The notes beneath the pieces are model-generated. The model was not told the DNA's origin, did no database searches, and saw only the letters and a list, made by a program, of their open reading frames with translations. Below are positions 17,301 through 46,814 of a stretch of DNA of 64,000 nt, one piece after another. Numbering within the stretch: position 1 is the first letter of the stretch; each line of letters starts with the position of its first letter. This stretch comes from Cymbidium sinense. Taxonomy: Eukaryota > Streptophyta > Magnoliopsida > Asparagales > Orchidaceae. The stretch spans positions 9,899,179 to 9,963,178 of the forward strand of contig CM038228.1 of NCBI GenBank assembly GCA_021442155.1, given 5' to 3'. A program made the translations under genes and the position numbers.

Positions 17301-17303
<3 letters not shown>

Positions 17304-19459: not shown

Positions 19460-19871
19460 CATAAATATATAATATAAATATATAATATATGTATATAATA
19501 TTAATACATAATAATTCAACAAAATATGTATACATAAATATTATTGTAAAAAAAAGATCATCAAAGTATATGTGTATATATGTTAGAAAAAGTGAAAGAA
19601 TAATATGTATATATCATTATGTATATTTTATACATACCTAATCAAAAGAAATAAAATAATAATAATAAATGATAAAGATTAATAACTCCTCCAACTAGTG
19701 TGGTCGGGTTCAGTCCAACCCAAATTTTCATGACCAACCCACGAATATTATATGGATTGAAAAACCCAACCTAAACCTCAACTCACAAACCCACCATTTA
19801 ACCTACTTATCGATTGAAATATTACAACTAACCAAATCCATTTTACATAGTTACCCCAATAAAGGCAAAAA

Positions 19872-19876
19872 AAAAT
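19872..19876. repeat. Left target-site duplication of element 2 (candidate)
   Basis: AAAAT abuts the TG at 19,877. The right flank of the element (46,810-46,814) is AGAAT, so four of five bases match, as expected for an old 5 bp duplication. The left copy sits in an A run, which weakens it. Confidence 0.5.
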
Positions 19877-22800: not shown

Positions 22801-25800
22801 GAGATGAATAAGAATGGATTCAAACAAGTGGTGTGCTCTTTTCAAATGAGTTATACACTTTACCAAATTTTTATTCAAAACTATGCTAAATATGAAGGAA
22901 AGGAAAAACTACACTAGACACATTTTTATATTTCCATCACATGCAAGCTTATAAGTAAAATTTAAGTAGCACACTTTCAGTTTTGATAATAATTCATATA
23001 TTTTGAAATTAATTTGGATTTAGTTGTGATAATAGCCATTCATATTCCTACTTTAGCCAAACATGCAATTTGACATGAAAATATTTTATTTTTAAATTTG
23101 ATTTTGAAAAGCATGAATGTATGAAATCATATGCCACACATATTTAGCATGTTTGAAAAAAATTAAAGTGATGAAAACATGTAAATACATTCACCCTAAT
23201 TAATTCATAAAGATAATCTTATGAGATAGGCATGCTTAAAATAAATCAAAGTTTGTCTTCATGTGATTTTTATTTCATTTTTTGGTTTTATGTTTATGTA
23301 TGATTTCAATTTGAAAAATGTGAGGTAAGTTATTCATAACCCATTCCCACACCTATTCATTATCTTTGTTCAATTTTTAGATGATTAAATCAATTTTATG
23401 TTTTAGTTAGGTTAATGTGTGATTAAGTATATTAATTATCCCTTACTTTAGCATAGTTAATCACATAATTATGAGCCAATGAGATGACATAAAATCACGT
23501 GAAGGAATTTAAATCAACAATGCAGCTAGGAAAGAAATGGCCTAATGCAATTTGGCTCATGATTAAGGATTAATTAAACTAAGGGGTTAATTTAAGTACT
23601 TTCTTAATCCCTCTCACATGTCAATTGGATTTGGATTTCCTTAAGCTACTTAAGTTATTGAACACCTAAGCACCTACCCAAAACAAATTAGTTGAGTTCT
23701 GGAATGTTTTAGAAATTTATGAAATTAATTAAATTAATTAATGAATTACCCTAATTAAGTGAGGATTGAGGAAGGGAAAGGGGGTTTAAGGAATAGCTTA
23801 GGGGAAATTCCCCAAAGTTATTTCCAAACTATTCACTATAACAGACTTAATCAAGTTAAATAAAATATTAATTCACTAATTAAATTAATTAGATTAAGTG
23901 ATTAGGGAATGAATTAGTAATTTCTCCAATAAAGCTACCAATAAATCCTAGAAAATTAGAGAGAAGTCATCCCCCAAAATATACTCAAGAAATTTGAAAT
24001 TAATTAATGGCTTAATTAAAGGATAATTAATGAAATAATATTCCTAAAGAAACTGAAATCAGAAAGATACATTTCAAAATCCATTGAAATCAATTTTAGA
24101 ATATTCAAGGTTGAATTATCTTTCAGTGGCAATTTATCTCATATTTTTCTAATTTTTCTAAGTGGAGATATGAATTTTAGAAGTTTATATGATTAATTAG
24201 AATTAAATAAGCCTTAATTAATTTCTTAATCCAATGGCGCACCATGCATGTAGCTGACTCGGATGCACTTTACACTCATCATCCTCCGAGTGGCCACTTA
24301 AACATCACGTATGCCAATGGCGGCGACACTTGCTTTTTCAGTAGTTTGATCGATCGAGCAGATTTAATCTCGGTTTTAAAAGGATAAAATCAGATCTAAA
24401 GCGTATGTTTAATCTCGATCATCCATCCAAAATGCGCAGAAGGACGACTAGAGATCTATCCCTGCCAACGCATGTGATCCATGGAGACCGTCCAAGTTCT
24501 AGGCTTGATTCGAGCTTGATTGGGATGAAATTTTGCACACACCATCTAACCCTAATGGCAAGCACATATAACAGTTGAAACTTCATGCCATTAACATTTC
24601 TTTCACAAAGGACCACACATGGTTTAGTGATCAAAAATGTCTAAACGATGGAGGTGATCCGGCTCGATTCCCTAGGAGGAGCTTCGTCTGAGATGAAGCT
24701 TTGGTGAAAGTTCTAGCTCTTGAGGTTGAGTGGATAGCTCTGTGGACCAACACCGCCTCCTAGTGAGCTTAGTTTTGATTGAAGTGAATCTCCCCTTGCC
24801 TTTGGAACTTGGGAAAGAGGTTGGGCAAGCTCTACTTGATTCCCTGAGGGAGTGTGCAAAGGGAATTTGGTTGAATTTAAGTGTAGTGGAAGTTGGCAAA
24901 TCCTTGGAGCTCCCTTATTTTTGCTTAAGGGAAAACTAAGAATGGCAAATTCAATCTCCCTCTAGAGAGCTTAGGATCACTCTAGAATCACTCCTCTTGC
25001 TTCTTATGCTTCAATCGATAGAGTGTGTGTGTGAATTGAGTTGAATTAGGGGGAGTATATCTCCCCCTTAGGCAATCGGATGGCCGAAGCTTCACTTGCT
25101 ATTTTGATCAAATTGACCTTAGGCAGTGGGTTGTTTGATCTATTAGAGGCTTCCATAGGGTCAGTTTGGCTAGATGAGTGGAATAGTAACTCCCATGTGC
25201 TCAAATTGAGTGGAAGCATGATGTGGCCAATTTGAGCCATGTGCTTAGTTTTGGCCTTGGGTCAAGTTGGGCTTAAACCCATTGGGTTGGGTGCACCACC
25301 CTCCATAAGGTTTACTTGACCTATTAGGAGAGTATCAAGTAGGTATGAAGAGGAATTGACCAAAATTTATTCTATGGCATAGGGGTAGAATGTTCATTTG
25401 GCTGATTTTTGAATTTGGATATGTTGGGTATGTTGAGAAAATAGGTTTGGCCAAGTTTCATTGGATTTGGAGTCCATTTGGTATGGTTTGGCTCTTGTTG
25501 ACCCATTTAGGTCAAAATGGGTCAACTTGGGTCAAGTTGACCAATTGGTCAAATTGGGTAAAACCAAGGGTTGGGTCAAGTTCATATGACCATTTAAAAT
25601 GTTTTAGTGGCTTTGGTTTGATTTAATTTGGTTTAGGTTTGAATTTGGTTCATATGACTTCATTTAGGTCAAATGGGTCAAGTTGACAATTTGACCCATT
25701 TGACCTATTTTTAGCTAGGTCATGGGTAGGTTTAGGTTTGGTTTATCATATGAAGTGGATTGGTATCTTTATTTCCAGCCAATTTTGGTTAAGTTTGCTC

Positions 25801-27414
25801 AAAATGACCCTTTAGGTCAAGTTGGGTTCAAGGTCAATTGGGCTAGGTTAGGTCTTGTTGGCTAATTGAGGCTTTGGTCAAGTTCAATAAGTGATTTGGA
25901 ATGAACTTGACCCATTGGTTTCAATCAATTTGGCTTAGATCAAGTTTTGACATATTTTGACTTTTTAGGTCAAGTTGGGTCAACTTGTGGTATTAATGGG
26001 CTAGGTTAGGCTCAAAGGTTGACTTGGTCAAGTTCAAACATAAATCATGAATGAACTTAGATTAATGGTTTCAATCAATTTAGCCTATAGTGGATTTTGG
26101 CTATGTTGGGTTTTATTTTAGGTTAACGGTTTGACTTGGTTTTACCCAATTTGACTGATTGGTCATCCCATGATGATTGTTGATCATGATGAGAGGCATA
26201 GATGGGCTTAATCCAATTTGGTTAGGCTTAGAATTTTGCTCATAAAGGATACATTAGGTCACTTTGGGTCAAGTGAGCGAGTAGATCAAATGGCTTGGTC
26301 AAAGCTTGATTGAGTTTGATTGAACTTGTTATTATGATTGAAATATAAATCCATTTACAAGTGGTTTGAAGTCAAATGGGCTTTGGTTCATTTGACAATT
26401 TCATATTCAAAGGGTGAACATGAAATGGACTTGAGTTTGATTTTTTGAATTGGGTTTTGATTTGGTGATTGAAGTTTGTATTTATATTTGGGTTCATGAT
26501 TGTAGGATTGATTGAATCATGAAAGAAAATCAAGAGTTTGGCTTGATTTGAAGTTGATTTGGCTAAGTTCAAAATTTTGACTTGAAAGACTTAGGGATTT
26601 TGATTGAATTTGAGTTTGATTTTTGAGTTGATTTTGGTTGTTTGAATTTATATTTCATTTATATATGTGAATATAAATGAGAATATAAATGGGTTATGTA
26701 AAAATTTCAAATAGTTTAAGTGATTTGAAGTTGATTTGAGCTAAGTCCTTAAGAGGGAATTGAAGGACTTTGAAAATATTTGGAATTTCAATTTGGATAT
26801 TGATTTGATTGATTTGAATTTCTCATTTATATATGTGAATATAATGAGAATATAAATGGGTTATGAAATTTCATGAATTGGAATTAATTTAGATTTGATT
26901 TAGTCCATGATGGGAGATCAAGGACTTAAGATTTGGAATTTGGAATTTCAATTTGGAATTCAATTTGATGATTTAAATTTATATCTTATTTATATATGTG
27001 AATATAAATGAGAGTATAAATGAGTTGTGAGGAAATTTATGAGTTTGAATTGATTTGAAGATGATTTAGGCTAAGTCCTTAAGAGGGAATTAAGGACTTA
27101 GCAAATATTTCAAACTTGGAATTTCAATCATGTGATATTGATTTGAGTTTGGAGAAAATCAAATAAGATTCATTTGGAGTTTTGACTTGAAGGAAGGAAG
27201 GTGAGGAATGGTTCAAGCTAAGGGTAGGAAAAATTTTCTAACACCCCTAAGGCATGACCTATTCTTATAGCTAACTCTTCTAAGTCTCTAGGGCTAGGTT
27301 GAGTGTCCACCTAATCACTAGATGTGTCTTAAGACTAAGGATACGTTAAAGTCTAAGAGGAGTCCTATGTCTAAGATGGAGGGGTTGAGAGCTCACTCTA
27401 AAATGAGGTCAACA
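19877..27414 (-). repeat. Element 2: 3' LTR (7,538 bp)
   Basis: Aligns along its whole length with 39,167-46,809 by many matching blocks (for example 19,880-20,120 with 39,170-39,390; 21,170-21,960 with 40,400-41,210; 24,395-24,510 with 43,729-43,850; 27,220-27,414 with 46,610-46,809). Differences are mostly point changes and short indels. The open stretches inside it are short and not shared as frames between copies, so no LTR-encoded protein is supported. Confidence 0.85.
26380..27110. repeat. Degenerate tandem repeat of about 170-180 bp in the 3' LTR tail, each with inverted repeats
   Basis: The blocks around 26,650-26,760, 26,825-26,930 and 26,985-27,105 share a TTTATATATGTGAATATAAA segment and an AAGTCC...GGACTT segment. 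Each segment is itself an inverted repeat, the best being a 13 bp perfect stem with a 7-nt loop at 27,070-27,102. The same block is present at 45.78-46.51 kb in the other LTR. Confidence 0.7.
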
Positions 27415-27578
27415 AAGGGCTCCCAATAGGTGTGGTATGACAAGGAACACCATATTTGTTGACCAACAATCAACAACACCGAAAGATCACAAGCACTAAT
27501 AGAAATAATCTACCCCTAACCCAAGGTGTAGAAAGAATCTGGAGCTTAGTGCAATGTGGCTCTACTTATGTCCAAGAC

Positions 27579-27628
<50 letters not shown>

Positions 27629-28015: not shown

Positions 28016-28019
28016 ATTG

Positions 28020-29940: not shown

Positions 29941-30069
29941 TCCTAAGATAAGCAAACAATGCTTCGAAAGAAGAGAAGATTTGATGAGTGGAATTTGATT
30001 TTGTTATTTTTATTAATACTTATTTTTAAACATGATTTATTTCATGGGTAATATTTCTTTAGATAGAGC

Positions 30070-31440
30070 CCATTAATTGGAAGCATCAGGTGCTCCCCTT
30101 TACAATCAATAAGCTAATAAGATCCTCCTTGGTAGGCCTTCTCTATGATATAGGGGCCTTCCCAAGTGGGTTCAAACTTGCCTCCCATATTTGACAGCAA
30201 TTGGTCTCCTTAGGACTAACACAAGTTCTCCTACTCAGAAAGACCTAGGGTGGACTAGATTATTGTGAGCTTGAATCATTTTGGCCTTGTACAACTCAAG
30301 GTTTTGGCACGCACGTAGGCGACTCTCCTCCAAACCTTTGAGCTCTTCTAACCGCAACTTTGCATTCTTCTCTGTAGTGATCTTGCTACCCAATGCTATC
30401 CTTAGTGAAGGGAGTTAAGCTTCTAAAGGTAGAACGACTTCGGACCCATACACTAAGGAAAATAGGGTAGACTAAGTTGGAGTTCGGTATGTGGTGCGGT
30501 AGGCCCACAAGGCTTTAACCAACTACTCATGCCACTATCTCTTATTGTCATTAAGAGTATTCTTCAGTATCTGGATGAGAGTTCTGTTGAATGCTTCTAT
30601 TAAATCATTTTCTCTAGGGTAGTAAATGGTGGAGTATCTCCAATCGATACCATGTCTTCTGGTGAAGCTATTGATCTTGGTGCTTTTGAATGTAGTACCA
30701 TTATCAAATATAATTCATTGAGGCACCGAACCTGATATATGGTTCCTAAAAAATTGAAACACATGTGACTATGACATCTCTGAGTGGGATTTCCTCCACC
30801 CACTTGAAAAAGTAGTCAATGGCAGCTAAGATGAATTGATGCACCTTGAAAGAAGAAGGATCAATAGGATCCACAATGTCGGTACCCCAACACTCGAATG
30901 GAAATGAGGCTAATATAGGGTATAGAATGTTGGGTGGTTGGTGGAGGACATACCGTGCACTTGACACTGATGGCATCTCCTAACCACATCCATGCAGTCT
31001 GTAATCATCAAAGGCCAGTAGTATCTAAGTTGCTTGATCTTGATCTTCATCTTCGGATCGGATTGATGTGCTCTGCATAGACTTGAATATACCTTGGTTA
31101 CAATGTCATGAGCTTCATGTTTGTCTAAATAATGTAACCATATTTGGTTAAAGGAATGGCGATACAGGGTTCCATCAACAAGAGCATAGGAGAGAGCTCT
31201 TTGTTTCACCTGATGGGCTTGTGACTTTTGTTTACGTAGTTTTCTAGTGTTCAAATAGTCTATGAATGGTTGCCTCCAATCCATCCTCATCCTTTTGGAA
31301 ATAGTAACCTCTCCTTGAGAAAGTCTCTCAATGAGTTCACAATCAATAAGGGATAGGACTTGTCTATTTTGGACCCATATTGAAATGGACTCATCTTCCG
31401 GACATGCCAATTCTTTGGCAAGTTTTGCCAAGGCATCTAC
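30070..31440 (-). pseudogene. Element 2: integrase (Ty3/gypsy pol C-terminus), decayed
   Basis: Readable minus-strand integrase with all three modules. The zinc-binding N-terminus lies in the 173-codon stretch at 30,910-31,431: RRCHQCQ keeps both cysteines, but the first histidine of the pair appears replaced by tyrosine. The catalytic core has the DDE triad: D in WGTDIVDP (30,878-30,880), D in FDNGTTF (30,703-30,705) and E in LIEAFNRTL (30,595-30,597). The C-terminal YGSEVVLPLEA and GELVLVLRR segments lie at about 30,080-30,470. Stops (for example shortly before FDNG) and frameshifts break it. This enzyme would insert the cDNA copy into the genome. Confidence 0.9.
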
Positions 31441-31830
31441 TACTACGTTCTCTCCATGGGGAACCTTGTAGATGGTGACTTCAGGAATCTAGGCCAACAA
31501 CTTTATGGTATACTCATGGTAATGATGAAGCTTGGGTTTGAGAACCTAGTAGGATCAGATGACCCAGGAATCCCAAAGATGTTTATCTTGCTCCGATGAT
31601 GATGGCTAACTCCAGACTGACAATCAATGCCTCATACTCAGCTTCATTGTTGGTGCAGGGGTTGGAAAGATAATATGAGAATCTCATCACATTACGGTCT
31701 GGAGTTAGAAGAACTATTCCTACTCCTGCCTTTCTTGGGAGAATAGATCATGGTGCTTCTACTTTGTGAAAAGAAGCTGCACCATCAAAATACATCTCCC
31801 ATCGGTGGTTGCTGACCTCCCCTAAGATCA
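31441..31830 (-). pseudogene. Element 2: second (archaeal-type) RNase H domain
   Basis: The minus strand reads MYFDGAAS, with the catalytic Asp at 31,784-31,786, and further on TNNEAEYEALIVSLELA (about 31,600-31,656) with the conserved acidic residue. This is the extra RNase H found between RNH and integrase in Tat-lineage elements, thought to supply the active enzyme. A stop follows KVEAP, so the frame is interrupted. Confidence 0.8.
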
Positions 31831-31951
31831 TGATTTGTTCATCAGGGAGATCATCACTAAGCGGAGAATCAACAAGCAGTGGGTGTGCTGTTAAGAAATC
31901 TGCTAGTGTCTATCATTTTATCACATGGAGGGGTATGAATGTGATGTCAAA

Positions 31952-32425
31952 CTACAAGAGTATCATGGACCAACGTGCCAAACATCCAGATTGCATTGGT
32001 CGTGTCATGAGATACTGTAGTGGATTTGTTCTGAAGATCAAGTTCACCTTATGAGAAAGCATGTAGTACCATAGCTTTTGAAAAGCAACGATCAAAGCTA
32101 GGCAATGATTCTCAATAGGTGGATAGTTTTCTTCAGCAGGAATCAAATGAAGGCTGAGATAGTAAAGAGTGATTTCCTTTCCTTCGTCATTATCTTGGGC
32201 CAACAGAGCACCGAGAGAGTCATCTAATGAAGTAGTGTAGAGGATGAGTGGCCTGCCTGGGATAGGGGCTGCTAAAACTAGCGGCTTCACCAAATACTGC
32301 TTGATATATTCAAAGGCATACTGCCACTTATCATCCCAGTTGAACTTGGCATCCTTTTTGACAAGTGCATAAAATGGCTTGCATCTCCCCGATAGGTTGG
32401 AGATAAAGCATCTTAGATATGCCAA
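31952..32425 (-). pseudogene. Element 2: RT connection and first RNase H domain
   Basis: A 157-codon open stretch. The first 45 residues are the RT connection (MAYLRCFISNLSGRCKPF, the usual 'rRFIsnls...pf' block). The rest is RT-linked RNase H with LYTTSLDDSLGALLAQ, then PAEENYPPIENHCLALIVAF and LQYLMTRP. The catalytic Asp/Glu set of active RNase H is not obvious here, in line with this domain being degenerate in the Tat lineage. Confidence 0.85.
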
Positions 32426-33514
32426 TCATCCTTGGAAGGATCTGAGTTATGTTAGACTTTTAGGAGGCGACATTTCTAAGATAGCTTTGATCCTTTCAGG
32501 ATCTACCTATATTCCCCAGTGTCAAACAACAAACCCAAGAATTTCCCTAAAGCTACTCTAAATGCACACTTCAGGGGATTCATTTTGAAGTTATATTATC
32601 TTAACCGTTCGAAAATTACCCTTAAGTCAAAGATGTGGTCTACCTTTTCTCTGCTCTTAACTACTAGATCATCAACATAGCACTCAACCTAATGATGGAT
32701 GAATTCATTGAAGATAGTCGTTGGTATGTAGCACCATTTTAAGGCTGAATGGAATGACCTTATAACAAAAGATTATGATCGGGGTTCGAAAAGTGGTGTT
32801 TCTTTCATCTTCAGGAGACATCTTGATTTGGTTGTAGCTAGATGACCCATCCATGAAAGAAAACATTGCATGAGATGAGGCAATGTCCACCATTAATTTT
32901 GGTATAGGAAGAGAAAACTCATCCTTAGGACATGCCTTGTTTAAGTCCCTGAAATCGATGCATATGCGAATTTGGCCATTCTTCTTTTTAACTAGGATGA
33001 CACTGGCTAACTAGGTAGGGCATTTTTCTTCCTTGATGAAGCCAGCATCGATTAGTTTCTTGACCTCAGAAATGACCTGTTGTTTGATTTTTAATTGCAT
33101 GAGTCTAGGAGCTTTCTTAATAGGGGTAGCATTAGGATCTATTGCTAGCTTGTGGACTACTACATCAGGAGATAATCTGGGCATCTCTTCATAACTCCAT
33201 GTGAAGTAGTCTTTAAACTCAATCAATAGCCTAACTAAGTCATTGGTTTCTTCTTCATTCAACAACGAGCTGATGTACGTCGGGCATGGATTTTCTTCTA
33301 TCCCGAGGTTGATTTCTTTAAGCTTGTTGTCAATTGTTGAGTGGATCTCCTCTTCAAATTTTGGAGGTGCATCCTTGATTTGAAGATCTTCTGAATCATT
33401 TGAGGTTTCTAAACACACATTTTCATAAGAGTTGGGGTTGTGTGAAAAGAACCTATCAGACTCCAAATGATTGATAACAACCAAATAGTAATCATCGTCA
33501 TTGACTGGACCCAC
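32426..33514 (-). pseudogene. Element 2: reverse transcriptase, decayed
   Basis: The N-terminal RT segment (33,011-33,514) contains the fingers-region leader (FTWSYEEMPRLSPDVVVHKL, then KKLIDAGFI). After a frame change, 32,705-32,893 carries SSYNQIKMSPEDERNTTFRT. The catalytic YVDD box is intact at 32,668-32,679, followed by LVVKSREKVDH. At least two frame changes and several stops separate these parts. RT copies the element RNA into DNA. Sequence is closer to a functional RT than the copy in element 1. Confidence 0.9.
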
Positions 33515-34110
33515 TATACTGAATCTTAGTCCTAATCTTGATTGTGCTTCCCTTCCTATATTGTTCCAAAGTTTCTCAAAATGCTTTGACCTGTGCTTGG
33601 ACCATGTATGAGGAACAAACCTTTCTATATAAGATTTTGAACATAAGGTGAGTAAAAGTCAAATAGTAATTCCATTAAATCTTTAAATGAATCCTCCTCA
33701 AGTTTTACATCAACTTCTGGACTTGAGGATGATGAACCCAAAAAGAATCTATTCAGCTTTATATATTTGGAAGACTGAGGGGTTTCCTTAACTACTAAAC
33801 CTTCAACTTTTTGGGATGAAAGTGAGGTTAGAGCTAAGGTTCCCAACTGATCTTTAATAGTTTTACATGCATCTGATTCGAATATTTTGCCTTATCTGGA
33901 GGTCTGGTCTTCATCGTTGTCTGGATCGAAAGTCACCTCCAATGGACCCTGCTGAGAGGGGTTGGCAGGTATACTAATCACATGAGACTTGTCCTCCGGA
34001 TTCCAAATTTATGTGAATAGTAGGGTACTCTACAACTAGAACATAACCCATGTTGGCGATGTAATCGGAGGGTCTTCCACCTTTGCCTCTATTTTACTGC
34101 CTGCCAACTC
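33515..34110 (-). pseudogene. Element 2: gag-RT linker, protease segment missing
   Basis: The distance from gag core to RT is about 0.6 kb here against about 2.3 kb in element 1. Alignment by eye runs from 33,910 (matching about 3,120) and resumes at 34,110 (matching about 4,980), so some 1.7 kb holding the protease is absent. A 73-codon open stretch at 33,625-33,846 is part of the linker and carries no recognised domain. Confidence 0.65.
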
Positions 34111-35000
34111 CAACATGGAGGCTACGGTGGAGGCGTTGCCTCATTGGTGGAGAGGAGTGGAGTGCGAGGTCATGCTCTCTCAAATTGATCTCTAGCTGGC
34201 TATTTTCCCTTATCTACTGCTATAATTTCCCCGAGCTTCTTATCAAAAGCTTTCTGCGGCTTTTGCTTAGTTGATTGGTTGGAGAAAGGTGACTGTTTAG
34301 CTTCTCCTTGTAAGCTAGCCTCCTTGTTGATTAATTTCTCAAAGGTTTTGATGGTGAAACCCTTGAGCATGAAGGCGACCAAGCCATGGATATTCTTAAG
34401 TAGAATCTCGATGGCATATTGTTTGAACAACTATGGTTCGCATTTCATGCTCAAGTTACGGCACTTGAGAATGAAATCAATGAGGGACTCAATAGGATTA
34501 TGTTGGGCCATAATGAGATCACCAATAGTCACCCTTTGCTGAGCTCTAGCAAACCTCTTGATGAAGAGTTGCTCTAACTCAGCAAAAGTCTTCACTGAAC
34601 ATTGGGAATTTCACCAATCAAATGCTATCCCTGCTAAGCTGTTGACAAAGAGGCAGAAAAGTAAAGCATCGCTACCACCAGTGTTACAACAACTAGCTAT
34701 GAAATGTGCAACATGCTGCCTCGGGTTTCCACTGCCATCAAAGCTTTTGAAAGATGGTGGCACAAACCTTTGGGGTACTGGATGGTATCAAATTCCTCCA
34801 TGTAGGATCTACCCTTTGGAACTGATGATCCCCCTCGGGCTTGAGCCAATGCTTCTTTACTTCTGCTCAACCATGGATTTTATGTCATTTTATTGTATGG
34901 AGGTACTTTCCACTACCTTCCTATACATGTTAGTGCTACCTTACTCAATGGGAGGCAAGTCTTGTCTTGGGTCCAAGACATGCACTAACTATGGCTGACC
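34111..35000 (-). pseudogene. Element 2: gag core (Retrotrans_gag)
   Basis: The minus strand at about 34,440-34,560 reads RFARAQQRVTIGDLIMAQ and then PIESLIDFILKCRNLSMKC, a clear Retrotrans_gag core. It continues into FKQYAIEILLKNIHGLVAF at 34,390-34,430. A basic, glutamine-rich stretch follows at 34,200-34,300. Long open frames on the plus strand over this region (34,279-34,998) are antisense shadows. Confidence 0.85.
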
Positions 35001-36660
35001 GATCTCAGTTGTAGTAGGATGAACTGGTGCTTGTTTTTGAAGTATTGAGACTGCCGCTAACAAGTCCTTAGGTTTCTTTGCAATCATATCTATTTTTTCA
35101 TCTTTCTATTTTAATTATGCTAGGAGGTGTTGATGCTAGTGGGCTATGACTTCTTACTCAACATCATCACCTTCCATAGCCTGCTGCTCTCAGAGGAGAG
35201 AACTTTGTGTATCAACCATGTAGACTCCAACTGAGTCTCCCAATAAATCATCTTCATTGAGATCAAAGCTAATCTTTTCTTCATCAGACCAATCATATCC
35301 CAATATCTCCTTCTTTTCCATGAAATAATGATCCCTATCTCATCTAAAGATGATCAATAGGAACATATGACTTGGGTGATCATCTTGTAATGTCGAGAGG
35401 CACCAAACCTCCCATGCTGCCAGAGAATCAATCCTATGAGGACTATACTCACTAAAAGATATACACTCCTAACTGTCACTAACTCTAAAAGGTGTGACAT
35501 TCCTAAGAGGCTTTGCAATCATGTAACAGGGCATCTGCTCTCTCTACAACTATAGTAACCATCTCCAAATCCTACACGGTGGTGTTTGAGGAACACTATG
35601 CTTGGTTGTCACTCCTTCCGCAGCGTAAGGTCAAGCACGAGCTCGACCTCTCCGTAGTGGTGTAGATGTAGGATCCTGGCATGGGATCACCAATGGGGGA
35701 GTGCCTTCCCATATGGCCTTCATGGCCTTAATAGAATTGAGATGTTGTGATGTGAAGTGATGGCGGTAGAGCGATGTGGTGGACACCACCGACACTCTAT
35801 GATAAGCTATCCTCTTGATGAATGGTCCCATTAAGTAGGATGATATTTGTATGGGTGTAGCTTGAAAAAAAATGAGTGCATAAGCGGCAACTCGCCTCTC
35901 CCTACGGTGATTTGAGCAGTATGGGCCTCTTTGGCCCTCTCTTTGTTTCCCACAATGAAGGATGATGGATCTCAAATCAAATTGAGCTATGGACTCTAAA
36001 CATCGTGGCTACATGGCATGGCGACGATACCATACCTCCAACTCTGAGGGGGTGTTGGTGTTGGTGGAGGTGAAGTGTGGATCCTCCAAGCATCATCTGT
36101 CAGAGAGGATGAAATGGTACGTTGTAACCAGTGGGGCGTACCTCCTCTTGTGACGTAGCAGCCTCCATCTCCCAATCCTAGTATGATGACTGATCATGTG
36201 GTTTTATTTCTCCTTTGTGTCTAGTAGGATGAGCAGTGAGAACTCCAACCTTAAAGGTGGGAGGCAATCTCACAGGAATAGCCTTACCCTAGAAGGTGCC
36301 AAAGAGTTGGTGCTATTTACTAGGGTAGCATGGGAAACCACGGTGGCGGGCTGTCATCGCTAAAACTAGTGGAACTACCACTACTTTCCTCTTAATGAGG
36401 AGATGTCATCAGGTAGATCGATCTGGATGACCTTGCCACCACATTCTACTAGTTGTGAAGGAGTGCCTCACGTGATCTTTACTCCCTCAAATCCTCTAAA
36501 ATGGATAAGGTGGGTATGATCATCAAGGCCAAGTCCATGCCTTATGGGAAAGTGAACATAAACTTCTAGGAAGTTTCCATAGTATCAACCTGACTGAACT
36601 ATTGTCTATCAGGCAGGGGAGTCTACAATGTTGAAACTAGACTTGCATCAGATTTATATT
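35001..36660 (-). pseudogene. Element 2: gag N-terminal region, decayed
   Basis: Continues the gag reading direction toward the leader. Only broken open stretches remain (114 codons at 35,631-35,975). Order and length match the 5.6-7.0 kb part of element 1. No motif is recognised. Ogre elements have an extra ORF before gag; nothing here proves or excludes such an ORF. Confidence 0.5.
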
Positions 36661-36689
36661 GATTTTTAAATATGAATTTGAATTTAAAA

Positions 36690-38895
36690 TTTGATCCTAC
36701 ATCAAACATCCAAGTGTTAAGTGGGGTTCAAATGGATTTAGAGAAGATTTTGAATTTTTTATTGGAAAGAGGAAATTTTGAATATGAATCCAACTTCAAC
36801 AAATTTAGGTATGTTGAGAAGTGGAATCTAGAAGGATGCTTTAGGTTCATGTTTGAAATTGGATTTTGATTTGAAGACCCTTTCCTTTAACAAATTTGGG
36901 TATGTTAAAGTAAGGGTCAATTAGTTTTATTTTTTGATTTGAAATTTTGAAATTCACTCACTTAGCAAATTTGGGTATGCTAAGTGAGGTGTTTGAAAAT
37001 AATTGTTCCTTTTGGTTTGGTTTGCTTTGTCTTGTGATTTGTTGTTGATTTTGAAAGTTGGAATTCCCATTTAGCAAATTTGGGCATGCTAAATGAAGAA
37101 CCCAAGTGTGTTTTATTTTTGAAAGAATTTTGAAAATAGAATTCTTAGCAATTTTGAGTATGCTAAGAAACTCCTAAAGTGTTTCATTTGTTTTGGAAAT
37201 TTTGATTTTTGAAAAAGTAGGATTCTTAGTAAATTTAAGTATGCTAAGGGAATTCTAATGTGTTTCATTTGATTTTGATTTGTTTTTGATTGAAAGTGGA
37301 GACCTTACTTTAGCAAATATGGTATGTTAAAGATGAAGTTCCACTTAATTTTGTGAAATGAAAATTTCACTTAGCAAATTTGAGTATGCTAAATGAAATT
37401 CAATAGATGTGTTTGAAACTTTATGTTTTAGTTTTGTTTTGAAAATGGAAACTTCTCTTTGGCAAATTTATGCTAAAGTGAAGTTCAAAGTGTTCAAAAT
37501 TTTTGATTTTGAATTTGGAGACTTTACTTAGCAAATTTGAGTATGCTAAATGAAGTTCCAAATGTGTTTTGAATATTTCTTGGTTTTGAATTTGGAAACT
37601 TCACTTAGCAAATTTGAGTATGCTAAATGAAGTTCCAAATGTGTTTAAAATTTGTTTTGAATTTGGAAACTTCACTTAGTAAATTTGAGTATGCTAAATG
37701 AAGTTCCAAATGTGTTTGAAAATTTTTTTGGTTTGAATTTGGAAACTTCACTTAGCAAATTTGAGTATGCTAAATAAAGTTCCAAATGTGTTTTGAATTT
37801 TGAAAGTATAATTGTTAAGTCTTAATTTTTTGAGAAAAAGACTTCCATTCAACAAATTTGTGTATGTAGAAGTGGAAGCCAATCTTATTTTCTTTGCAAA
37901 TGTGAAAATTTTGTCTTGTGTGTGATTATTACTTTTTTGGAAAAGGGAATTCCAACTTAATCATATATGGGATATGTTTAAGTGGGATTTCCAAATGATG
38001 TTATTTTTATTTGGGAATGAAATCTTCATTCAATAAAATTGGGTATATTGAATGGAGATGTTCATATGTGCTTTTAAAAAAAATATTTATATCGATTTTG
38101 TTTTAGGAATGAAACCTCCATTCAATAGATTTGAGTATATTAAATGGGAAGGTTTCATATGTGATTTTTGAAAGTTCATTCTTGATTTTGATTTTTGAAA
38201 TGAAACATCCATTCAATAAATTTGAATATATTGAATGGCAAAATTTCATGTGTGCTTATAGAAAATTTATTTTTGATTGTGATTAAAAATGAAACCTCCA
38301 TTTAATAAATGTGGGTATATTGAATGGAGAGGTTTCATATGTGCTTTTTGAAAGTTCAATTTTTAATTTTGTTTTGGAATGAAACCTCCATTCAATAAAT
38401 TTGAATATATTGAATGGCAAGATTTCATGTGCTTTTGAAAAATTTATTTGATTGTGACTGAAAATGAAACATCCATTCAATAAATGTGGGTATATTGAAA
38501 GGAGAGGTTTCATATATGCTTTTAGAAAGGTGTGAATTCCAACTCAACACATGTGGAATGTGTTGAGTGAAATTTCAAAATTGTGATTTTGGTTTGAAGA
38601 TAGAATCCATCCAACACATTTGGATGTATTGAATGGAAATGCTCATCTTCAAATTTTGTGTTTTGAAAGATAATTATTGTTGGAATTTTATTTTTATGAA
38701 GATGATCTTCACATATAACAATCATAAAGATTGTTAGATGAAGATGATTTAGGAATATTTTTGTGTAAAATATTTTATTTAGTGCATTTTTGAAAGAGTG
38801 ATTTTTTTAAAAAAAGCAAGATTCTTTTTTCATGGAATAATTTATTTCTCTTTATTATTTTAGAATAAACATTTCCTTATCATAAAAATGATAAG
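36690..38895 (-). repeat. Element 2: leader array of about two dozen hairpin-forming repeats
   Basis: Unit after unit consists of a left arm, a conserved loop (plus strand AAATTTGAGTAT or close) and a matching right arm, at a spacing of about 65-95 bp. Examples are stems 36,957-36,967/36,978-36,988 (11 bp perfect), 37,068-37,076/37,087-37,095, 37,142-37,150/37,161-37,169, 37,363-37,376/37,387-37,400, 37,597-37,610/37,621-37,634, 37,946-37,966/37,972-37,992 (21-nt arms, few mismatches), 38,209-38,218/38,229-38,238, 38,543-38,552/38,558-38,567 and 38,876-38,883/38,888-38,895. Arm sequences differ strongly between units yet still pair. The array lies between PBS and gag, so it would be transcribed as 5' leader RNA of the element. 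Short open frames in it (60-77 codons) are by-products. Confidence 0.85.
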
Positions 38896-39166
38896 CATTA
38901 AGTCTTTAAATATTTTCTTTTTATTTAGATCTTTTTTATTTTTCCCATTGGAGAACGGGGGTTTTAAGACCAACACAAGGTGAGGTCCTAAAACCTAAAG
39001 ATGTTGGCTAGCTTAACTTAAGGATGAAATAAGCTAAGAGCCAATGGAAAGAAGAATAGTCTCGGATTCATACAAAAGTACAAACCCACTATCGATGCTT
39101 AAACAATGATCATTTACCAAAGATGGAGAGAGGAATCATCCCCAGTGGAGTTGCTAGAAAAATCTA
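38896..39166 (-). other. Element 2: leader next to the PBS
   Basis: Non-coding; aligns with about 7,900-8,142 of element 1 (shared words GATGTTGGC, AAGGATGAAATAAGC, GATGGAGAGAGGAA and similar). This is the most conserved non-coding part between the two elements. Confidence 0.65.
39139..39156 (-). promoter_or_regulatory. Element 2: primer-binding site candidate
   Basis: The minus strand reads TAGCAACTCCACTGGGGA, 10 nt after the 5' LTR end. It aligns with the element 1 site that starts TGG, so the first G was probably mutated to A here. Similar to the PBS I recall for Tat/Ogre elements; tRNA not determined. Confidence 0.5.
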
Positions 39167-42100
39167 TGGGTTAGAAAAAATTTTATATGATCGCCTTCCA
39201 TCTGTGGGGTGAAAAGGCAAGAATATAAAAATTCATCTTTTTGGGATGCCACATAGATCCGTGGGTGTACTTATTCAGGTGATCAAGTACGTTATCAAGG
39301 AATAGTATACTATGTCGGGAGATAGGAGTCACTGCCCTTTAATGGACCTAATCACCTAAATAAGGACTCCTAAGGATGTTAGGTCTTTGATGTGTACTAG
39401 AGATTCTTCCCCTACTTTACATGGAAAAGTAAAATAGGGTTATTTTAAACTGGGTTCGTTAAGTTCCTATGGCAAGCCCCAAAGTTACATCCTAAGAAAT
39501 GGGATTCCTTAGAAAACTCGATTAAGGTAAATGATCATTGTCTCTAAAGATTTCAATAGATGGGACTATCAATCATTGATTTATTTTGGAAAATCAAATG
39601 GGATCGATCAAGAGGAGGGAGTTCTTAAGATAAATGAGAAGTAGGGAATGCTTGGATACTAGAAGCTAATTACCCCCTATGGTTGGGCTTTATATTTTAG
39701 AAATTGAATTAGTTCATTTGAGTGGCATTTTCATTAGAATGCTAGGGCTTACAATTCCATAACACAAGATTATGGAAATGCCTAGAATTTATGCTTATGT
39801 CCTATAAAGGGAAAAGCCACCTCAGAATCCAAATCTAGGGAGCTTTGGTGCAAAACACCCTAAATCTAAGAGAAAATGGGTATTTGGTTTGCCTCCATAG
39901 AGGACAAACCACTTTTTGTACTCACTTTGGGGTGGCCAACTAACTCCTATGATTTTAAATTCATGTAGGCAAGTCATATGCTCTATGCATCTGGTCATGT
40001 TATTTATTTAGAAAGAGACTAAGTCCTTAAATAGACTAGATCATGTAAGTATGCTTCAAATGACTTAAATCTAATGCAATTCAAATTTCATTTTATTTTC
40101 ATTTTGGACAAATATTTTGACTCAGTTATATTCATATGCCTAATGCATGAAAAATGAGATTATTGGCCAAAATCGGTGAAAGCAAGAAGGTGTGTTTCCA
40201 CCATGGCTCTCATAGTCAAGTTTCTCTGGAAAGGTGGAAGCCCTCCAATCAAGAGTGAAAATAATATGCATTTGTGCATGATGTTATAAAAGAAGTATTC
40301 ATCCAGCTAATAGGTTGCTAATTCTTTTATCTAGATTTTTAGCATAAGCTTTAGGTGAGGTTATGAGTTCTTTATTTTTAGTTTTGAATTGTTAAACTTG
40401 GTAGAAGATTTATTTTTCTCTTAAGAGCTTAATCATCATCCAGCCATACATAAAGTAAGGAAGAAACTAGGAAAAGCATGCCACTTAATGTAAGCTAAAC
40501 AAATCATCAATCAATTTATAAAGCTAATCAAAAAGTATAAGAGGCCATTGTGGTGTACCATCGACAAAAATAAATTGGGTAGTGAGCTCTACCCTTATAC
40601 AACCAAGATTATAAATGAATTAAATACAATTAAGCAAGGAATTCATTATTATGGGGAATCTTCAAGCTTTCTTTTTTCTTCTTCTTTCCTTCTTTCTTCT
40701 TCTTCTTTCTTCTTTGGTTGTTTCTTTTGGATGGTTGGAAGATGGATGCTCCAAAGTCTTCACATGGTACATAAGATGTAATCTTCTGACAATGCTCATC
40801 CTAATCCCCATAATAATCATTCCAAAATCTTAATTGCAAAAATTACATGAAAAGGAAAAGAATGAAAATCTAACTAACACCTGCACAACAAAGATTAGCT
40901 AAAACAAACCACACAAATCCCAAGCATGTATATTGGACTTAGCACCCCATACATGGGTACTCAAGTCCACATAGCCTAATGGATTATGCTTAGGGGTATA
41001 AGCACCTGCATAATAAAAACATTTATATTTTTAATTATGGTAGCACCCCTTAAACATAATCCCCTGCAGAAGACAATGGTTAGACTAAACCGTCCTACCA
41101 TTCATTCTACGAGCATACACCCTAATATCCAGACTAAAACATATATCATAAAATAAAAGAAAACATGAAATCATGCATCGTCCAAACCTAAAGCTAGAAG
41201 TGATGACTTAGCCTAATGTGTGTGATTTAGAGGTTTGTGGTATGCTTGCTATAGCTTTAAGTTAGAGTTTTATAAGTATGAAGGATGTTTAACTTATAGG
41301 AGGGTTTCATTTAAGTTATTTAGATGTTTTTGGTTGATTTTATTTTGTGTTTTGATTAGGTTCAAGTGAATCCTACAATTAGTTACTAAGTTATAAGAGA
41401 GGAAAGAGAAGAGAACTTCTCTTTACCTTAAGTAATTTCTAAAGTAGATTCAAGCTTTGGTTTTATTTAGTGGATATTTTATTATGTGATTTAATTAATC
41501 CTAAGTTTATTTAAACTCTAAACAAACCTATTCAAAAAGAAAGATATTTTAAGATTAAATAAAGTGAAATGAAATCACAAAACACACATCACTTCATTTC
41601 TTTCCCAACATGTATAACAAGCATATGAATAATTCCTAAACATATCTATACATACAAATGGGAATGTTTAACACACTTTATGATGCATGATAAGTAACTT
41701 ATTTAAGAAAATTTGGATGTTTATGATGCACAATTTTCATTAAGTAGAAAAGGGATTTCTTTTCCAATTTTTCACATACACACATGAATGTATGAAAGGC
41801 ATAAGTGAGTACGGCACCATTGTTAGCACCATACGGCACCATTGTTAGCACCAGGGGTGTAAGGTACAAGACCTACTTGGGGCTACTTAAAGCCTCACAA
41901 TCTCAGGGTTTTTCATACTAATATACCACTTTCCTTAAATACAAGCATATGTATAAAAAAATAAATGGAAAAGGAAAGATGCAAAGTTCATTTTTTTATT
42001 TGTTTGGTTTATTTGTTTAGTTTATATATGTAAGTGTGGATTTTATTCTTGATTTGATAACATAGAGATGAATAAGAATGGATTCAAACAAGTGGTACAC

Positions 42101-43549
42101 TCTTTTCAAATGAGCTATACACTTTACCAAATTTTTATTCAAAATTATGCTAAATATGAAGGAAAGGAAAAAACTACACTATACACATCTTTATATTTCC
42201 AACACATGCAAGCTTATTGGTAAAATATAAGTAGCACACTTTCAGCTTTGATAATTGATTCATATATTTTTAAAAATAATTTGGATTTAGTAGTGATAAT
42301 AGCCATTCATATTTATACTTTAGCCAAAACATGCAATTTCACATAAAGAAAATATTTTCATTTTTAAATTTGATTTCTGAAAAGCATGAACATATGAAAT
42401 CATATGACACACATATTTTGCATCTTGGGTAAGAATTAAAGTGATAAAAGCATGTAAATACATTCACTCTAATTAATTCATAAAGACAATCTTATAAGAT
42501 AGGCATGTTTAAAATAAATCAAAGTTTGTCTTCATGTGATTTTTATTTCATTTTTTGTTTTATGTTTATGTTTGATTTCAATTTGCAAAATGTGAGGTAA
42601 GTTGTTATTCCTAACCCATTCCCACACCTGTTCATTATCTTTGTTCAATTTTTATATGATTAAATCAATTTTATGCTTTACTTAGGTTAAGGCATGATTA
42701 AGTGTATTAATTATCTCTTACCTACACCACCTTATCGTAGTTAATCCAATAATTATGAGCCAATGAGATGACATAAAACCACACAAGAAATTTAAATCAG
42801 CAATGCACCTAGGAAAGAAAGGGCCTAATGCAATTTGGCTCATGATTAAGAATTAATTAAACTAGGGGTTAATTTGGTACATTTCAATCCACACATCACA
42901 CATGTGAATTTGATTTGGATTTCCTTAAGCTACTTAGGTTATTGAACACCTAAGCACCTACCCAAAACAAATTAGTTGAGTTCTAGAATGTTTTAAAAAT
43001 TTATGAAATTAATTAAGGGAGTAATTAGTGAATTGCCCTTAATTAAGTGAGGATTAAGGAAGGGAAATGGGGTTTAAGGAATAGCTTAGGGGAAATTGCC
43101 CAAAATTATTTTATAAACCTCCTATTCATTGTAACAGACCTTAATTAACTTAAATAAAGGATTAATTTACTAATTAAACCTTTAATTAAGCTTAATTAGA
43201 TTAAGGGAGTGATTTGGGAATGAAATAGCAATTTCCCCAATTAAGCCACCAATAAATCCCAAAAAACTTAGGAGAGGTAAAAGTCATCCCCCAAAATATA
43301 CTCAAGAAATTTGAGATTAATTAATAGTTTAATTAAAGTATAATTAATAAAAACAACATTCCCAAAGAAACCCAAAATTAGAGAAATATACATTTCAAAA
43401 TCCATTAAAATCAATTTTAGAAAATTCTAGGGTGAATTATCTTTCAGTGGAAATTTATTTCATATTTTTTTTATTTTTCTAGGTGGAGATACAAACTTTA
43501 GAATTTTATATGATTAATTAGAATTAAATAAGCCCTAAATAATTCCTTA

Positions 43550-43850
43550 ATCCAACGGGTGACGCATGACTGGATACACTTTACACACATCGTCCTCCAA
43601 GTGGCCACTTAAACATCACATCATAGCTTCGCGTGGAGGCGGCGCTATGTGCTTTTGCCTCTGTCGTTCGATCAAGGATCGAACGGTTGGGATTTAATCT
43701 GTAATTTTAAAAGGATAAAATCAGATCTAAAGCGTATGTTTAATTTTGGTTGTCCATCCAAAATGTCTGGATGGACGGCTAGAGATCTATCCCTCCTAAC
43801 TCCTGTGATCCATGGAGATCGTCCATGTTCTAGGCCTTGATTCGAGCTCG
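43550..43850. promoter_or_regulatory. GC-richer island in the LTR middle with strong inverted repeats
   Basis: This stands out from the AT-rich surroundings and recurs at 24,230-24,510 and, more distantly, 16,480-16,740. Perfect inverted repeats here are CGTTCGATC/GATCGAACG (43,665-43,673/43,677-43,685, 3-nt loop) and GTCCATCCA/TGGATGGAC (43,752-43,760/43,768-43,776, 7-nt loop). Both are partly lost in the 3' LTR. It may contain the LTR promoter or R region, but no TATA box on minus is convincing. Confidence 0.35.
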
Positions 43851-44865
43851 ATTGAGCTCAAATTAGGATGAAATTTTGCACACACCATCTAACCCTAATG
43901 GCGAGCACATCTAACGATTGAAACTTCATGCCATAAAAATTTCTTTCACAAAGGACCAACATACATGGAGTTTAGTGATCAAAAAATGTCTAACCTCATC
44001 GGAGGTGATCGCTCGATTCCCTTGGAGGAGCTTCGTCTGGTTGAGACAAAGCTTTGGTGAAAGTTCTAGCTCTTGAGGTTGAGTCGATAGCTCTATGGAC
44101 CAACCCCTCCTCCTAGTGAGCTCAGTTTTAATTGAAGTGAATCTCCCCTTGCCTTTGGAACTTGGGAAAGAGATTGGGCAAGCTTGACTTGATCCCTTGA
44201 GGTAATGTGCAACGGAATTTTGTTGAATTTGAGTGAAGTGGAAGTTGGCAAATCCTTGGAGTTCCCCTATTTTTCTTAAGGGAAAACCAAGAATGGCAAA
44301 TTCCCTCTCGAGAGCTTAGGATCACTCTAGAATCACTCCGGCTTACTCAATAGGCAGTGTGTGTGTGTGAATTGAGTTGAATTAGGGAGTATATCTCCCC
44401 ATAGGCAATGGACGGTAAGCTTCACTTGCCTTTTTGATCAACCTTAAGCAGTGGGTTGTTTGATCTGTTAGAAGCTTGCACATGGTCGGTTTGGCTAGAG
44501 GAGTGGAATGGTAACTCCCCATGTGCTCAAATTGAGTGGGAGCATGATTCCCATGTGGCCAATTTGAGCCATGTGCTCGGTTTTGGCCTTGGGTTAAGTT
44601 AGGCTGACCCAAACCCATTGGGTTGGGTGCACCACCCTCCATAGGGTTTACTTGACCTATTAGGAGAGTATCAAGTAGGTATGAAGAGGAATTGACCAAA
44701 TTCCCCATGCATTTAACTAAAATTTGTTCTATGGCCTAGAGGTATAATGTTCATTTAGCTTATTTTTGAATTTGGATATGTTTGGTATGTTGAGAAAATA
44801 GGTTTGGCCAAGTTTCATTGGATTTGGAGTTCATTTGGTATGGTTTGGCTCATGTTGACTCATTT

Positions 44866-45064
44866 AGGTCAAAATGGGTCAACTTGGGTCAAGTTGACCA
44901 ATTGGTCAAATTGGGTCAAACCAAGGGTTGGGTCAGGTTCATATGACCATTTGAAATGTTTTAGTGGCTTTGGTTTGATTCAATTTAGTTTAGGTTTGAA
45001 TTTGGTTCATATGACTTAATTTAGGTCAAATGGATCAAGTTGACCAATTTGACCCATTTGACCT
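44866..45064. promoter_or_regulatory. Dense cluster of W-box-like hexamers in the LTR
   Basis: Ten TTGACC/GGTCAA hexamers occur in 199 bp (six GGTCAA, four TTGACC on plus), where chance expects about 0.1. TTGACC is a form of the W box bound by WRKY transcription factors. The same enrichment is visible in the other LTRs (25.5-26.0 kb, 17.4-18.5 kb, 9.0-9.9 kb). It may be regulatory or simply low-complexity repetition. Confidence 0.5.
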
Positions 45065-45781
45065 ATTTGAGCTAGGTCATGGATAGGTTTAGGTTTGGTT
45101 AGTCATATGAAGTGGATTGGTATCTTCATTTCCAATCAATTTTGGTTAAGTTTGAATTTGGCTCAAAATGACCCTTTAGGTCAAGTTGGGTTCAAGATCA
45201 ATTGGGCTATTGAGGCTTTGGTCAAGTTTAATAAGTGATTTGGAATGAACTTGACCCATTGGCTTCAATCAATTTGTCTTAGATCAAGTTTTGACACATT
45301 TTGACTTTTTAGGTCAACTTGGGTCAATTTGGGTCAAGTGGCCAATTGGGCTAGGATAGGTTCAAATGTTGACTTGGTCAAGTTCAAATATTGGTCATGA
45401 ATGAACTTAGATCAATGGTTTCAATCGATTTGGCCTATGATGGATTTTGGTTATATTGGGTTTCATTTTGGCTAAGTGTTGACTTGGTCAACCCTTAGGT
45501 TTGACTTGGTTTGACCTAATTTGATTGATTCATCATCCCATGATGATTGTTGATCATGATGAAAGGCATACATGAGCTTAGTTCAATCCAATTTTGTTAG
45601 GATTAGAATTTATCTCATAAAGGATACTTTAGGTCACTTTAGGTCAAGTGAGCCTAAGTAGGTCAAATGTCTTGGTCAAAGCTTGATTGGAGTTCAATTG
45701 AACTTGTTTATGGACTCATGATTGAAATATAAATCCATTTACAAGTGGTTTGAAGTCAAATGGGTTTTGTTTCATTTGATA

Positions 45782-46486
45782 ATTTCATATTCAAAGGGTG
45801 AATATGAAATGGATTTGTGTTTGATTTTTGAATTGGGTTTTGATTTAGGATTGAAGTTTGTATTTATAGTTAGGTTCATGATTGTAGGATTGATTGAATC
45901 ATGAAAGAAAATCAAGAGTTTGGCTTGATTTGAAGTTGATTTGGCTAAGTTCAAGATTTTGACTTGAAAGACTTAGGTTGGATTTTGATTGAATTTGAGT
46001 TTGATTTTTGGAGTTGGTTTTGGTTGTTTAAATTTATATTTCATTTATATATGTGAATATAAATGGATTATGAAAATTTCAAAGGTTTGAAGTGATTTGA
46101 AGTTGATTTGAGCTAAGTCTTTTAGAGGTAATTAAAGGACTTAGGAAATATTTAGAATTTGGAATTTCAATTTGGATATTGATTTGATTGATTTGAATTT
46201 ATATCTCATTTATATATGTGAATATAAATAAGAATATAAATGGGTTATGAAAATTTCATGAATTGATTTAGATTTTATTTAGGCTAAGTCCATGAAGGGA
46301 GATCAAAGGACTTAGGCAAGATTTGGAATTTGGAATTTCAATTTGGAATTCAATTTGGAATTCAATTTGATTGATTTAAATGTATATCTCATTTATATAT
46401 CTGAATATAAATGAGAAAATTTTATGAGTTTGAATTTATTTGAAGATGATTTAGGCTAAGTCCTTAGAGGGAATTAAGGACTTAGC
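45782..46486. repeat. Hairpin units in the first kilobase of the 5' LTR
   Basis: Perfect inverted repeats: ATTTCATATTCA/TGAATATGAAAT at 45,782-45,793/45,799-45,810 (12 bp, 5-nt loop) and GCTAAGTCCTTA/TAAGGACTTAGC at 46,455-46,466/46,475-46,486 (12 bp, 8-nt loop), with TATATGTGAATATA-type stems between. Corresponding stems in the 3' LTR are at 26.4-27.1 kb, one of them 13 bp perfect. Confidence 0.75.
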
Positions 46487-46809
46487 AAATATTTCAAACT
46501 TGAATTTCAATCATGGATTTCAATCATGTGATGTTGATTTGAGTTTAGAAAATCAAATAAGATTGATTTGGAGTTTTGGCTTGAAGGAAGGAAGGTGACG
46601 AATGGTTCAAGCTAAGGGTAGGCAAATTTTCTTAACACCCCTAAGGCATGACATATTCCTATGGCTAACTCTTCTAAGTCTCTAGGGCTAGGTTGAGTGT
46701 CCACCTAATCACAAGATGTGTCTTAAGACTAAGGATCCCTTAAAGTCTAAGAGGAGTCCTATGTCTAAGATGGAGGGGTTGAGAACTCACTCTAAAAATG
46801 AGGTCAACA

Positions 46810-46814
46810 AGAAT
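46810..46814. repeat. Right target-site duplication of element 2 (candidate)
   Basis: AGAAT directly follows the LTR end CAACA. It matches the left flank AAAAT at four of five positions. Confidence 0.5.

What the first reader, a model, noticed from the sequence alone, without database searches (positions are those of the whole stretch)
36690..38895. Tandem array of about two dozen hairpins with co-varying stems in a retrotransposon leader
Each unit is an imperfect inverted repeat around a conserved loop of about 10 nt. Arms change together between units: CACTTAGCA/TGCTAAGTG (36,959-36,986), CATTTAGCA/TGCTAAATG (37,068-37,095), TTCTTAGCA/TGCTAAGAA (37,142-37,169), CCATTCAATA/TATTGAATGG (38,209-38,238), CTCAACACAT/ATGTGTTGAG (38,543-38,567). 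Conserved pairing with changing sequence is the mark of selection on structure, or of a process that copies one arm into the other. The array sits between PBS and gag, so it would be leader RNA. I know of no described Ty3 element with such an array. Possible roles are packaging or dimerisation signal, translation control, small-RNA source, or recombination hot spot.
Basis: partly seen in the sequence, partly recalled or inferred. Interest (0 to 1): 0.88.

Follow-up and report, generated by a model that had tools for sequence, protein, structure and literature searches.

The report
Hairpin array in orchid retrotransposon leader
A very large plant retrotransposon carries about two dozen small hairpins in a row just after its first long terminal repeat, and across many copies the two arms of the hairpins tend to change together, so the pairing itself seems to have been kept; what the hairpins do is not yet known.

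Summary
Window 36690-38895 carries about 24 hairpin units (14 strong ones against a mean of 0.87 in 30 dinucleotide shuffles). The array is the leader of a roughly 27-kb Ty3-type element on the MINUS strand, with LTRs of about 7.6 kb and a Tat/Ogre-like domain order. A core motif of the unit occurs 117,370 times in the 3.5-Gb host genome (reversed control 2). The array lies next to the LTR end in 20 of 20 fetched copies.

Across 611 distinct units from 34 loci the arms co-vary along one helix beyond a tree-based null (pairing 0.769; null mean 0.538, maximum of 300 runs 0.647); 13 further arrays alone repeat this. Single pairs are weaker: in a blind scan of 2211 pairs none reached E 0.05. Restorations of pairing are commoner on internal than on terminal branches, as expected if pairing matters while the element replicates. 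A sense-strand G-U test was neutral, so RNA action is likely but unproven. Tandem 5'UTR repeats and palindromic LTR repeats are known in other retroelements; nine searches (capped listings) showed no covarying hairpin array in a plant Ty3 leader.

The parts
36690..38895 (-). Array of about 24 hairpin units (start-to-start spacing mostly 70-110 nt) in the leader; element sense = minus strand
37580..37646 (-). Representative unit: stem of 14 bp with one mismatch, 10-nt loop, linker that is A/C-rich in the sense strand
38007..38521 (-). Six units of a diverged class, stem mostly CATTCAATA/TATTGAATG, showing the paired changes most clearly
37946..37992 (-). Divergent hairpin not reported by the unit profile
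38542..38568 (-). Divergent hairpin with a 5-nt loop, not reported by the unit profile
38712..38740 (-). Divergent hairpin with a 5-nt loop, not reported by the unit profile
38896..39138 (-). Leader between PBS and array; similar to window 7897-8132 and detected in 18 of 20 fetched copies
39139..39155 (-). PBS-like site, 2 mismatches to a recalled plant-retroelement motif (0 mismatches in L045)
   Evidence: the motif is recalled, not from a call
39158..46810 (-). 5' LTR (about 7.6 kb; inner edge probably near 39167)
19871..27415 (-). 3' LTR, K2P 0.082 to the 5' LTR over 7326 aligned sites
33660..36689 (-). gag-side region; broken here. In L033 a gag-like frame lies about 1.6-2.2 kb downstream of the array
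   Evidence: Retrotrans_gag E 0.0026, 18.4 bits, below the 24.1 cut-off
32708..33010 (-). Reverse transcriptase piece (PF00078)
31955..32425 (-). RNase H piece (PF17917)
31586..31747 (-). Second RNase-H-like piece (PF13456, RVT_3) between RNase H and integrase
30913..31488 (-). Integrase zinc-binding piece (PF17921)
45810..46547 (-). Second hairpin repeat, in the 5' part of the LTR (about 171-bp unit, two hairpin types)

Best explanation
The array is a repeated cis-acting hairpin element in the leader of a Tat/Ogre-like LTR retrotransposon of a plant, very probably an orchid. Shown: the units are hairpins with a largely conserved loop; the arms change together over many copies; restorations of pairing are relatively commoner on internal branches and breaks on terminal ones. 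Inferred: base pairing is under selection while an element lineage is replicating, and not after a copy has been inserted. Inferred and less certain: it acts in the genomic RNA as a multivalent structured site, each hairpin presenting nearly the same loop, most plausibly for Gag binding, packaging or dimerisation.
For: Helix-level covariation beyond a tree-permuted null in the first set (pairing 0.767; null 0.534, sd 0.044, max of 400 = 0.669), in 236 unseen units from 13 further arrays (0.773; null 0.526, max of 300 = 0.650) and in all 611. Pairs 30-45 and 20-55 exceed all 600 simulations; 28-47, 21-54, 17-58 and 31-44 are exceeded by 4, 7, 7 and 9 of 600; 23-52, 25-50 and 26-49 by 20, 32 and 41. 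Other diagonals tried (sums 68-82) show an excess of at most 0.361 against 1.776. Share of restorations among single changes between paired and unpaired: internal 92 of 297, terminal 67 of 449 (Fisher p 2.5e-7, branches treated as independent). Both-sided pair-to-pair changes on internal branches: 8, null mean 1.6, max 6 of 200 runs. Loop-edge columns (32-37, 41-43) have 2-10 inferred changes each, stem columns 19-31 have 6-48. Folding in the sense strand: z -3.2 to -8.9 in 9 array windows, -1.6 to +0.8 in 14 windows at 27500-36199. Stem pairs form better in sense than antisense RNA in the 4 arrays folded, of 34 held (0.48-0.64 against 0.21-0.42). At pair 26-49, C-A (a G-U pair in the sense RNA) is found in 153 of 361 units and the opposite wobble in 6, in the second set 95 and 6 of 231; 49 of 75 units paired at nine other stem positions carry it, none the opposite.
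Against: No strand preference for wobble intermediates overall: changes from a Watson-Crick pair to sense against antisense wobble 63:62 on internal and 106:112 on terminal branches, 26:33 and 47:54 in the second set, 53:68 and 124:141 on a tree built without the 5' arm; cells outside pair 26-49: 328 against 353. A blind per-pair scan found nothing at E 0.05. Ten of 19 pairs on the diagonal, among them 18-57, 19-56, 22-53, 24-51, 27-48, 29-46 and 32-43, show no covariation beyond the null. Both-sided changes on terminal branches are not in excess (7; null mean 3.7, max 9). The middle of the loop (columns 38-40; 38, 27 and 30 changes) is as variable as the stem. The antisense strand of the array also folds better than shuffles (z -0.9 to -8.0), and so do some LTR windows (down to -7.8 in sense). 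Trees from 72 columns are weak, so branch counts are rough. No transcript, probing or protein data. The loop's self-complementary AAATTT (309 of 375 units) showed no compensated variants among the commonest forms listed.
Confidence: 0.5

Rival explanations
1. Arm-to-arm copying: a templated process (strand switching in reverse transcription, or hairpin repair in DNA) keeps converting one arm into the complement of the other, without selection on structure.
For: The neutral strand test fits a DNA-symmetric process. Restorations are shared equally between the arms, 62 and 59 of 121. If it acts only during retrotransposition, decay after insertion is explained too.
Against: A C-A mismatch persists at pair 26-49 in 49 of 75 units paired at nine other stem positions; copying tracts should erase it. 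No branch carries three or more restorations, though correction of lone mismatches would also look so.
Confidence: 0.2
2. DNA-level cis element: repeated dyad sites for a host protein acting as enhancer or insulator, as in the 5'UTR of Drosophila gypsy and ZAM.
For: Same position and tandem design as the gypsy Su(Hw) array (12 sites) and the ZAM repeat (passages of PMC7168160 and PMC8872304). The conserved loop edges could be a binding site. Neutral strand test.
Against: Protein sites should conserve sequence; here the arms change while pairing is kept.
Confidence: 0.15
3. By-product: palindromic tandem repeats that expand and drift, with hairpins serving at most as a source of small RNAs and a target of methylation.
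For: Unit number varies from 11 to 29 per array. Arrays nearly lack CG and CAG/CTG sites, which are targets of maintenance methylation in plants (the last point is general knowledge). Palindromic LTR repeats attract small RNAs in maize Sireviruses (PMC10760457 passages).
Against: Drift alone does not give covariation beyond the tree null nor relatively more restoration on internal branches.
Confidence: 0.15

Closest known systems
Drosophila gypsy (Su(Hw) insulator) and ZAM 5'UTR tandem repeats
   Same: Tandem repeat array in the 5'UTR of a Ty3/gypsy-type element; repeated 5'UTRs reported in 19 of 49 Drosophila elements (passages)
   Different: Described as protein-binding DNA; PMC8872304 holds neither 'hairpin' nor 'secondary structure' in its main text
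Maize and other Sirevirus (Ty1/copia) palindromic LTR motifs
   Same: Clusters of palindromic repeats in a non-coding cis region of a plant LTR retrotransposon (passages of PMC2829016 and PMC10760457)
   Different: Copia, in the LTR, mostly with a CGG-CCG core. [quoted passage not shown]
Tat-lineage (Ogre, Retand) tandem repeats
   Same: Large non-chromovirus Ty3 elements with internal tandem arrays (passages of PMC11963269, PMC6317226 and PMC7004042)
   Different: Those arrays lie between pol and the 3' LTR and are called hypervariable; the word hairpin does not occur in the main text of PMC11963269
Retroviral and Ty1 leader packaging/dimerisation structures
   Same: Structured leader region; palindromic PAL sequences in Ty1 (passages of PMC4974528)
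   Different: As I recall, a few unique hairpins rather than about two dozen copies of one

Membership tests
Tat lineage (Ogre/Retand) of Ty3 retrotransposons | Second RNase H (aRH) between RH and integrase | tested here: met
   RVT_3 piece at 31586-31747 minus, E 1.4e-4, 22.2 bits against cut-off 21.6, between RH and INT; weak but correctly placed; definition from passages
Tat lineage (Ogre/Retand) of Ty3 retrotransposons | Position in RT-RH-INT phylogeny | not tested
   No reference set at hand; reading frames of the window copy are broken
Tat lineage (Ogre/Retand) of Ty3 retrotransposons | PBS type of the subclade | tested here: inconclusive
   PBS-like site at 0-3 mismatches in 11 of 20 loci, at 4 in one more, none at 4 or fewer in 8; 2 mismatches in the window. 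The motif is recalled and its tRNA was not checked
Tat lineage (Ogre/Retand) of Ty3 retrotransposons | Tandem repeats between pol and 3' LTR | tested here: not met
   The tandem-repeat scan lists only a 2-bp AG run at 27582-27624 between pol and the 3' LTR of the window copy; the feature is frequent, not obligatory (about half of Retand clusters)
gypsy-type 5'UTR insulator arrays | Host protein binds the repeat and blocks enhancers | not testable with these tools
   Needs binding and reporter assays
Sirevirus palindromic repeat motifs | Ty1/copia element with palindromes in the LTR and CGG-CCG core | tested here: not met
   Domain order RT, RNase H, integrase is that of Ty3 (the rule is general knowledge); the 21 aligned units are A/T-rich without that core
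Known RNA families (Rfam 15) | Match at gathering score | tested here: not met
   36600-39200 searched, five matches up to E 1, best 23.4 bits against 74 needed

The most novel reading that the evidence does not exclude
A plant Ty3 element has evolved a multivalent RNA device: about two dozen copies of one hairpin with a nearly fixed loop in its leader, whose pairing is maintained by compensatory change in the replicating lineage, and which gathers Gag or zips two genomes together for packaging.
Probability: 0.25. Interest if true: 0.82.

Novelty: new variant of a known kind. Interest (0 to 1): 0.58.

Why it matters
As far as I know, little is established about how plant LTR retrotransposons mark their RNA for packaging. 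Here one candidate site is repeated about 24-fold in a copy, and the core motif has over 100,000 hits in one genome, so compensatory evolution can be counted and dated. If the RNA reading is right, it gives a tractable packaging or translation signal in a plant Ty3 element; if the copying reading is right, it shows a mutational process that keeps palindromes matched. Either way the data set can separate selection from templated correction.

Tried and rejected
Strand test by G-U wobble: neutral overall. uORF idea: sense ATG is depleted (268 against 394 expected in 21 arrays; but 34 against 31.6 in the window's own array), it is only the 14th lowest trinucleotide and is not correlated with array pairing (Spearman p 0.81), so it is not used. 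Loop self-complementarity as kissing-loop evidence: the motif is common but no compensated variants were seen among the forms listed. Rfam: nothing near threshold. Blind pair scan: no pair at E 0.05. An early BLAST printed no gag-side rows because the query name held a space; one search shows that 18 of 20 loci share that flank with others. Whole-genome counts of the four pair states at 30-45 were planned but the service did not answer.

Rows dropped: 24 of 406 profile hits on the minor strand, then 7 duplicate rows; in the second set hits on the minor strand (number not printed), 5 duplicates of 260, and 19 of 255 distinct units already seen in the first set. Two of the window's 23 units belong to the second, fragmentary copy at 7560-7743 and were kept.

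Full report
WHERE IT IS. The window comes from a 3.53-Gb genome, contig C15. A PEPC-kinase-like reading frame at 52425-53366 has Dendrobium proteins as its eight best matches, 70-74% identical over 82-86% of the query, of 120 listed, so the host is very probably an orchid; the species is not established. Self-comparison shows a direct repeat of about 7.6 kb, 19871-27415 and 39158-46810, 85.8% identical with gaps counted, K2P 0.082 over 7326 aligned sites. Pol pieces lie between them on the minus strand in the order RT, RNase H, RVT_3, integrase. The element is thus about 27 kb, minus-strand, Ty3-type, with a Tat/Ogre-like second RNase H. In its sense the array follows the 5' LTR and a PBS-like site at 39139-39155. 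In the 12 of 20 fetched loci where such a site was found at 4 mismatches or fewer, it lies 364-603 nt before the array. A gag-like frame was seen in a related copy, L033, about 1.6-2.2 kb beyond the array (below the Pfam cut-off).

THE ARRAY IS REAL. There are 14 strong hairpins against 0.87 expected and 21 profile-detected units plus three further hairpins. Nine sense RNA windows of the array fold with z -3.2 to -8.9, while 14 windows at 27500-36199 lie at -1.6 to +0.8; the antisense strand and some LTR windows also score low. In the same hairpin scan only one hairpin is listed in 27416-36600, arms of one or two letters left out, while the LTRs hold several more.

IT IS A GENOMIC FAMILY. The 22-base core with up to 2 mismatches occurs 117,370 times (control pattern 2). 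At 7.5 such hits per locus (34 loci, mostly chosen for having perfect hits) this is of the order of 15,000 arrays, a rough figure. In 20 of 20 fetched 9-kb copies, all from one contig, the array is next to the LTR end, and in 18 of 20 the leader piece is also detected; 18 of 20 share the gag-side flank with others. The 13 smaller loci, from the same contig, were not checked for context.

CO-VARIATION. A sequence-only profile gave 382 units in the window and the first 20 loci, 375 distinct. The strongest mutual-information pair is 30-45, and 5 of the top 10 and 9 of the top 40 pairs lie on the stem diagonal (column sum 75). In a blind scan with a tree-permuted null the five best of 2211 pairs are stem pairs but none reaches E 0.05. 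For the helix as a whole (columns 19-31 with 44-56) the null is rejected: pairing 0.767 against 0.534 (max of 400 runs 0.669), excess 1.776 against 0.097 (max 0.697), other diagonals at most 0.361. Thirteen further arrays gave 236 unseen units with the same result (0.773; max of 300 null runs 0.650), and so did all 611 units, also with a tree built without the 5' arm (null max 0.581). Pair by pair, 30-45 and 20-55 exceed all 600 simulations, four more are exceeded by 4-9 of 600, three by 20-41, and the other ten of 19 are not distinguishable from the null. The window's own 21 units agree on a separate alignment, less clearly for the two stricter counts.

WHEN PAIRING IS KEPT. Among single changes between paired and unpaired, 92 of 297 on internal branches restore pairing and 67 of 449 on terminal branches; the first set (67 of 207, 54 of 302) and the second (47 of 139, 32 of 201) alone show the same. 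In null runs of the first set the two shares were alike, about 0.31 and 0.32 (from the means). I read this as maintenance while the lineage replicates and neutral decay after insertion. Breaks outnumber restorations on both kinds of branch. Branches are not fully independent and trees of 72 columns are weak.

RNA OR DNA? For RNA: leader position; a sense strand poor in G (8.8% in the window's array); better stem formation in sense in the 4 arrays folded; the sense G-U at pair 26-49. Neutral or against: no overall excess of sense wobble. I therefore put RNA action at about even odds within the selected-structure reading, and packaging or dimerisation as the likeliest single role only by analogy and from the repeated loop. 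Copying between arms remains open; the persistent C-A at 26-49 speaks against it.

LITERATURE. Nine searches were answered, several with capped listings. I read passages, not whole papers, of PMC2829016, PMC11963269, PMC6317226, PMC10760457, PMC7004042, PMC4974528, PMC7168160 and PMC8872304. Bousios et al. 2016 was not held and is used here only as cited in PMC10760457. None of the listings or passages that I saw describes a covarying hairpin array in a Ty3 leader of a plant; the library lacks most subscription papers.

VERDICT. A real, abundant and unusual structure with good but not overwhelming evidence for maintained pairing, and no demonstrated function.

Noticed in passing
window 45810-46547 and 26431-27128: The LTR carries its own tandem repeat (about 171 bp) with two hairpin types, CATTTATAT/ATATAAATG and GCTAAGTCCTTA/TAAGGACTTAGC.
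   Followed up: partly
window 36690-38895 and arrays of L031-L050: Arrays almost lack CG and CAG/CTG sites: 33 CAG+CTG in 33,009 bases of 20 arrays (observed/expected 0.09) against 0.89 in the gag-side flank of the same loci; LTR-side flank 0.44. Units share ancestry, so this is fewer independent observations than it looks.
   Followed up: partly
window about 958-18832: Remains of at least one more copy of the same family in the same orientation, with pol, leader and LTR pieces and two array units at 7560-7609 and 7692-7743.
   Followed up: partly
L044 and L046: Two copies share an odd arrangement in which an LTR fragment is joined directly to a pol fragment next to the array, suggesting a derived subfamily.
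   Followed up: no
window 41810-41853: A perfect 22-bp tandem duplication inside the 5' LTR.
   Followed up: no
window 52425-53366: Open reading frame of 314 codons for a PEPC-kinase-like protein, closest to Dendrobium proteins.
   Followed up: partly
window 47816-48271, 50558-50911, 55718-56287 (all minus): Pieces of other mobile elements: hAT dimerisation domain, copia-type gag, a reverse transcriptase.
   Followed up: no
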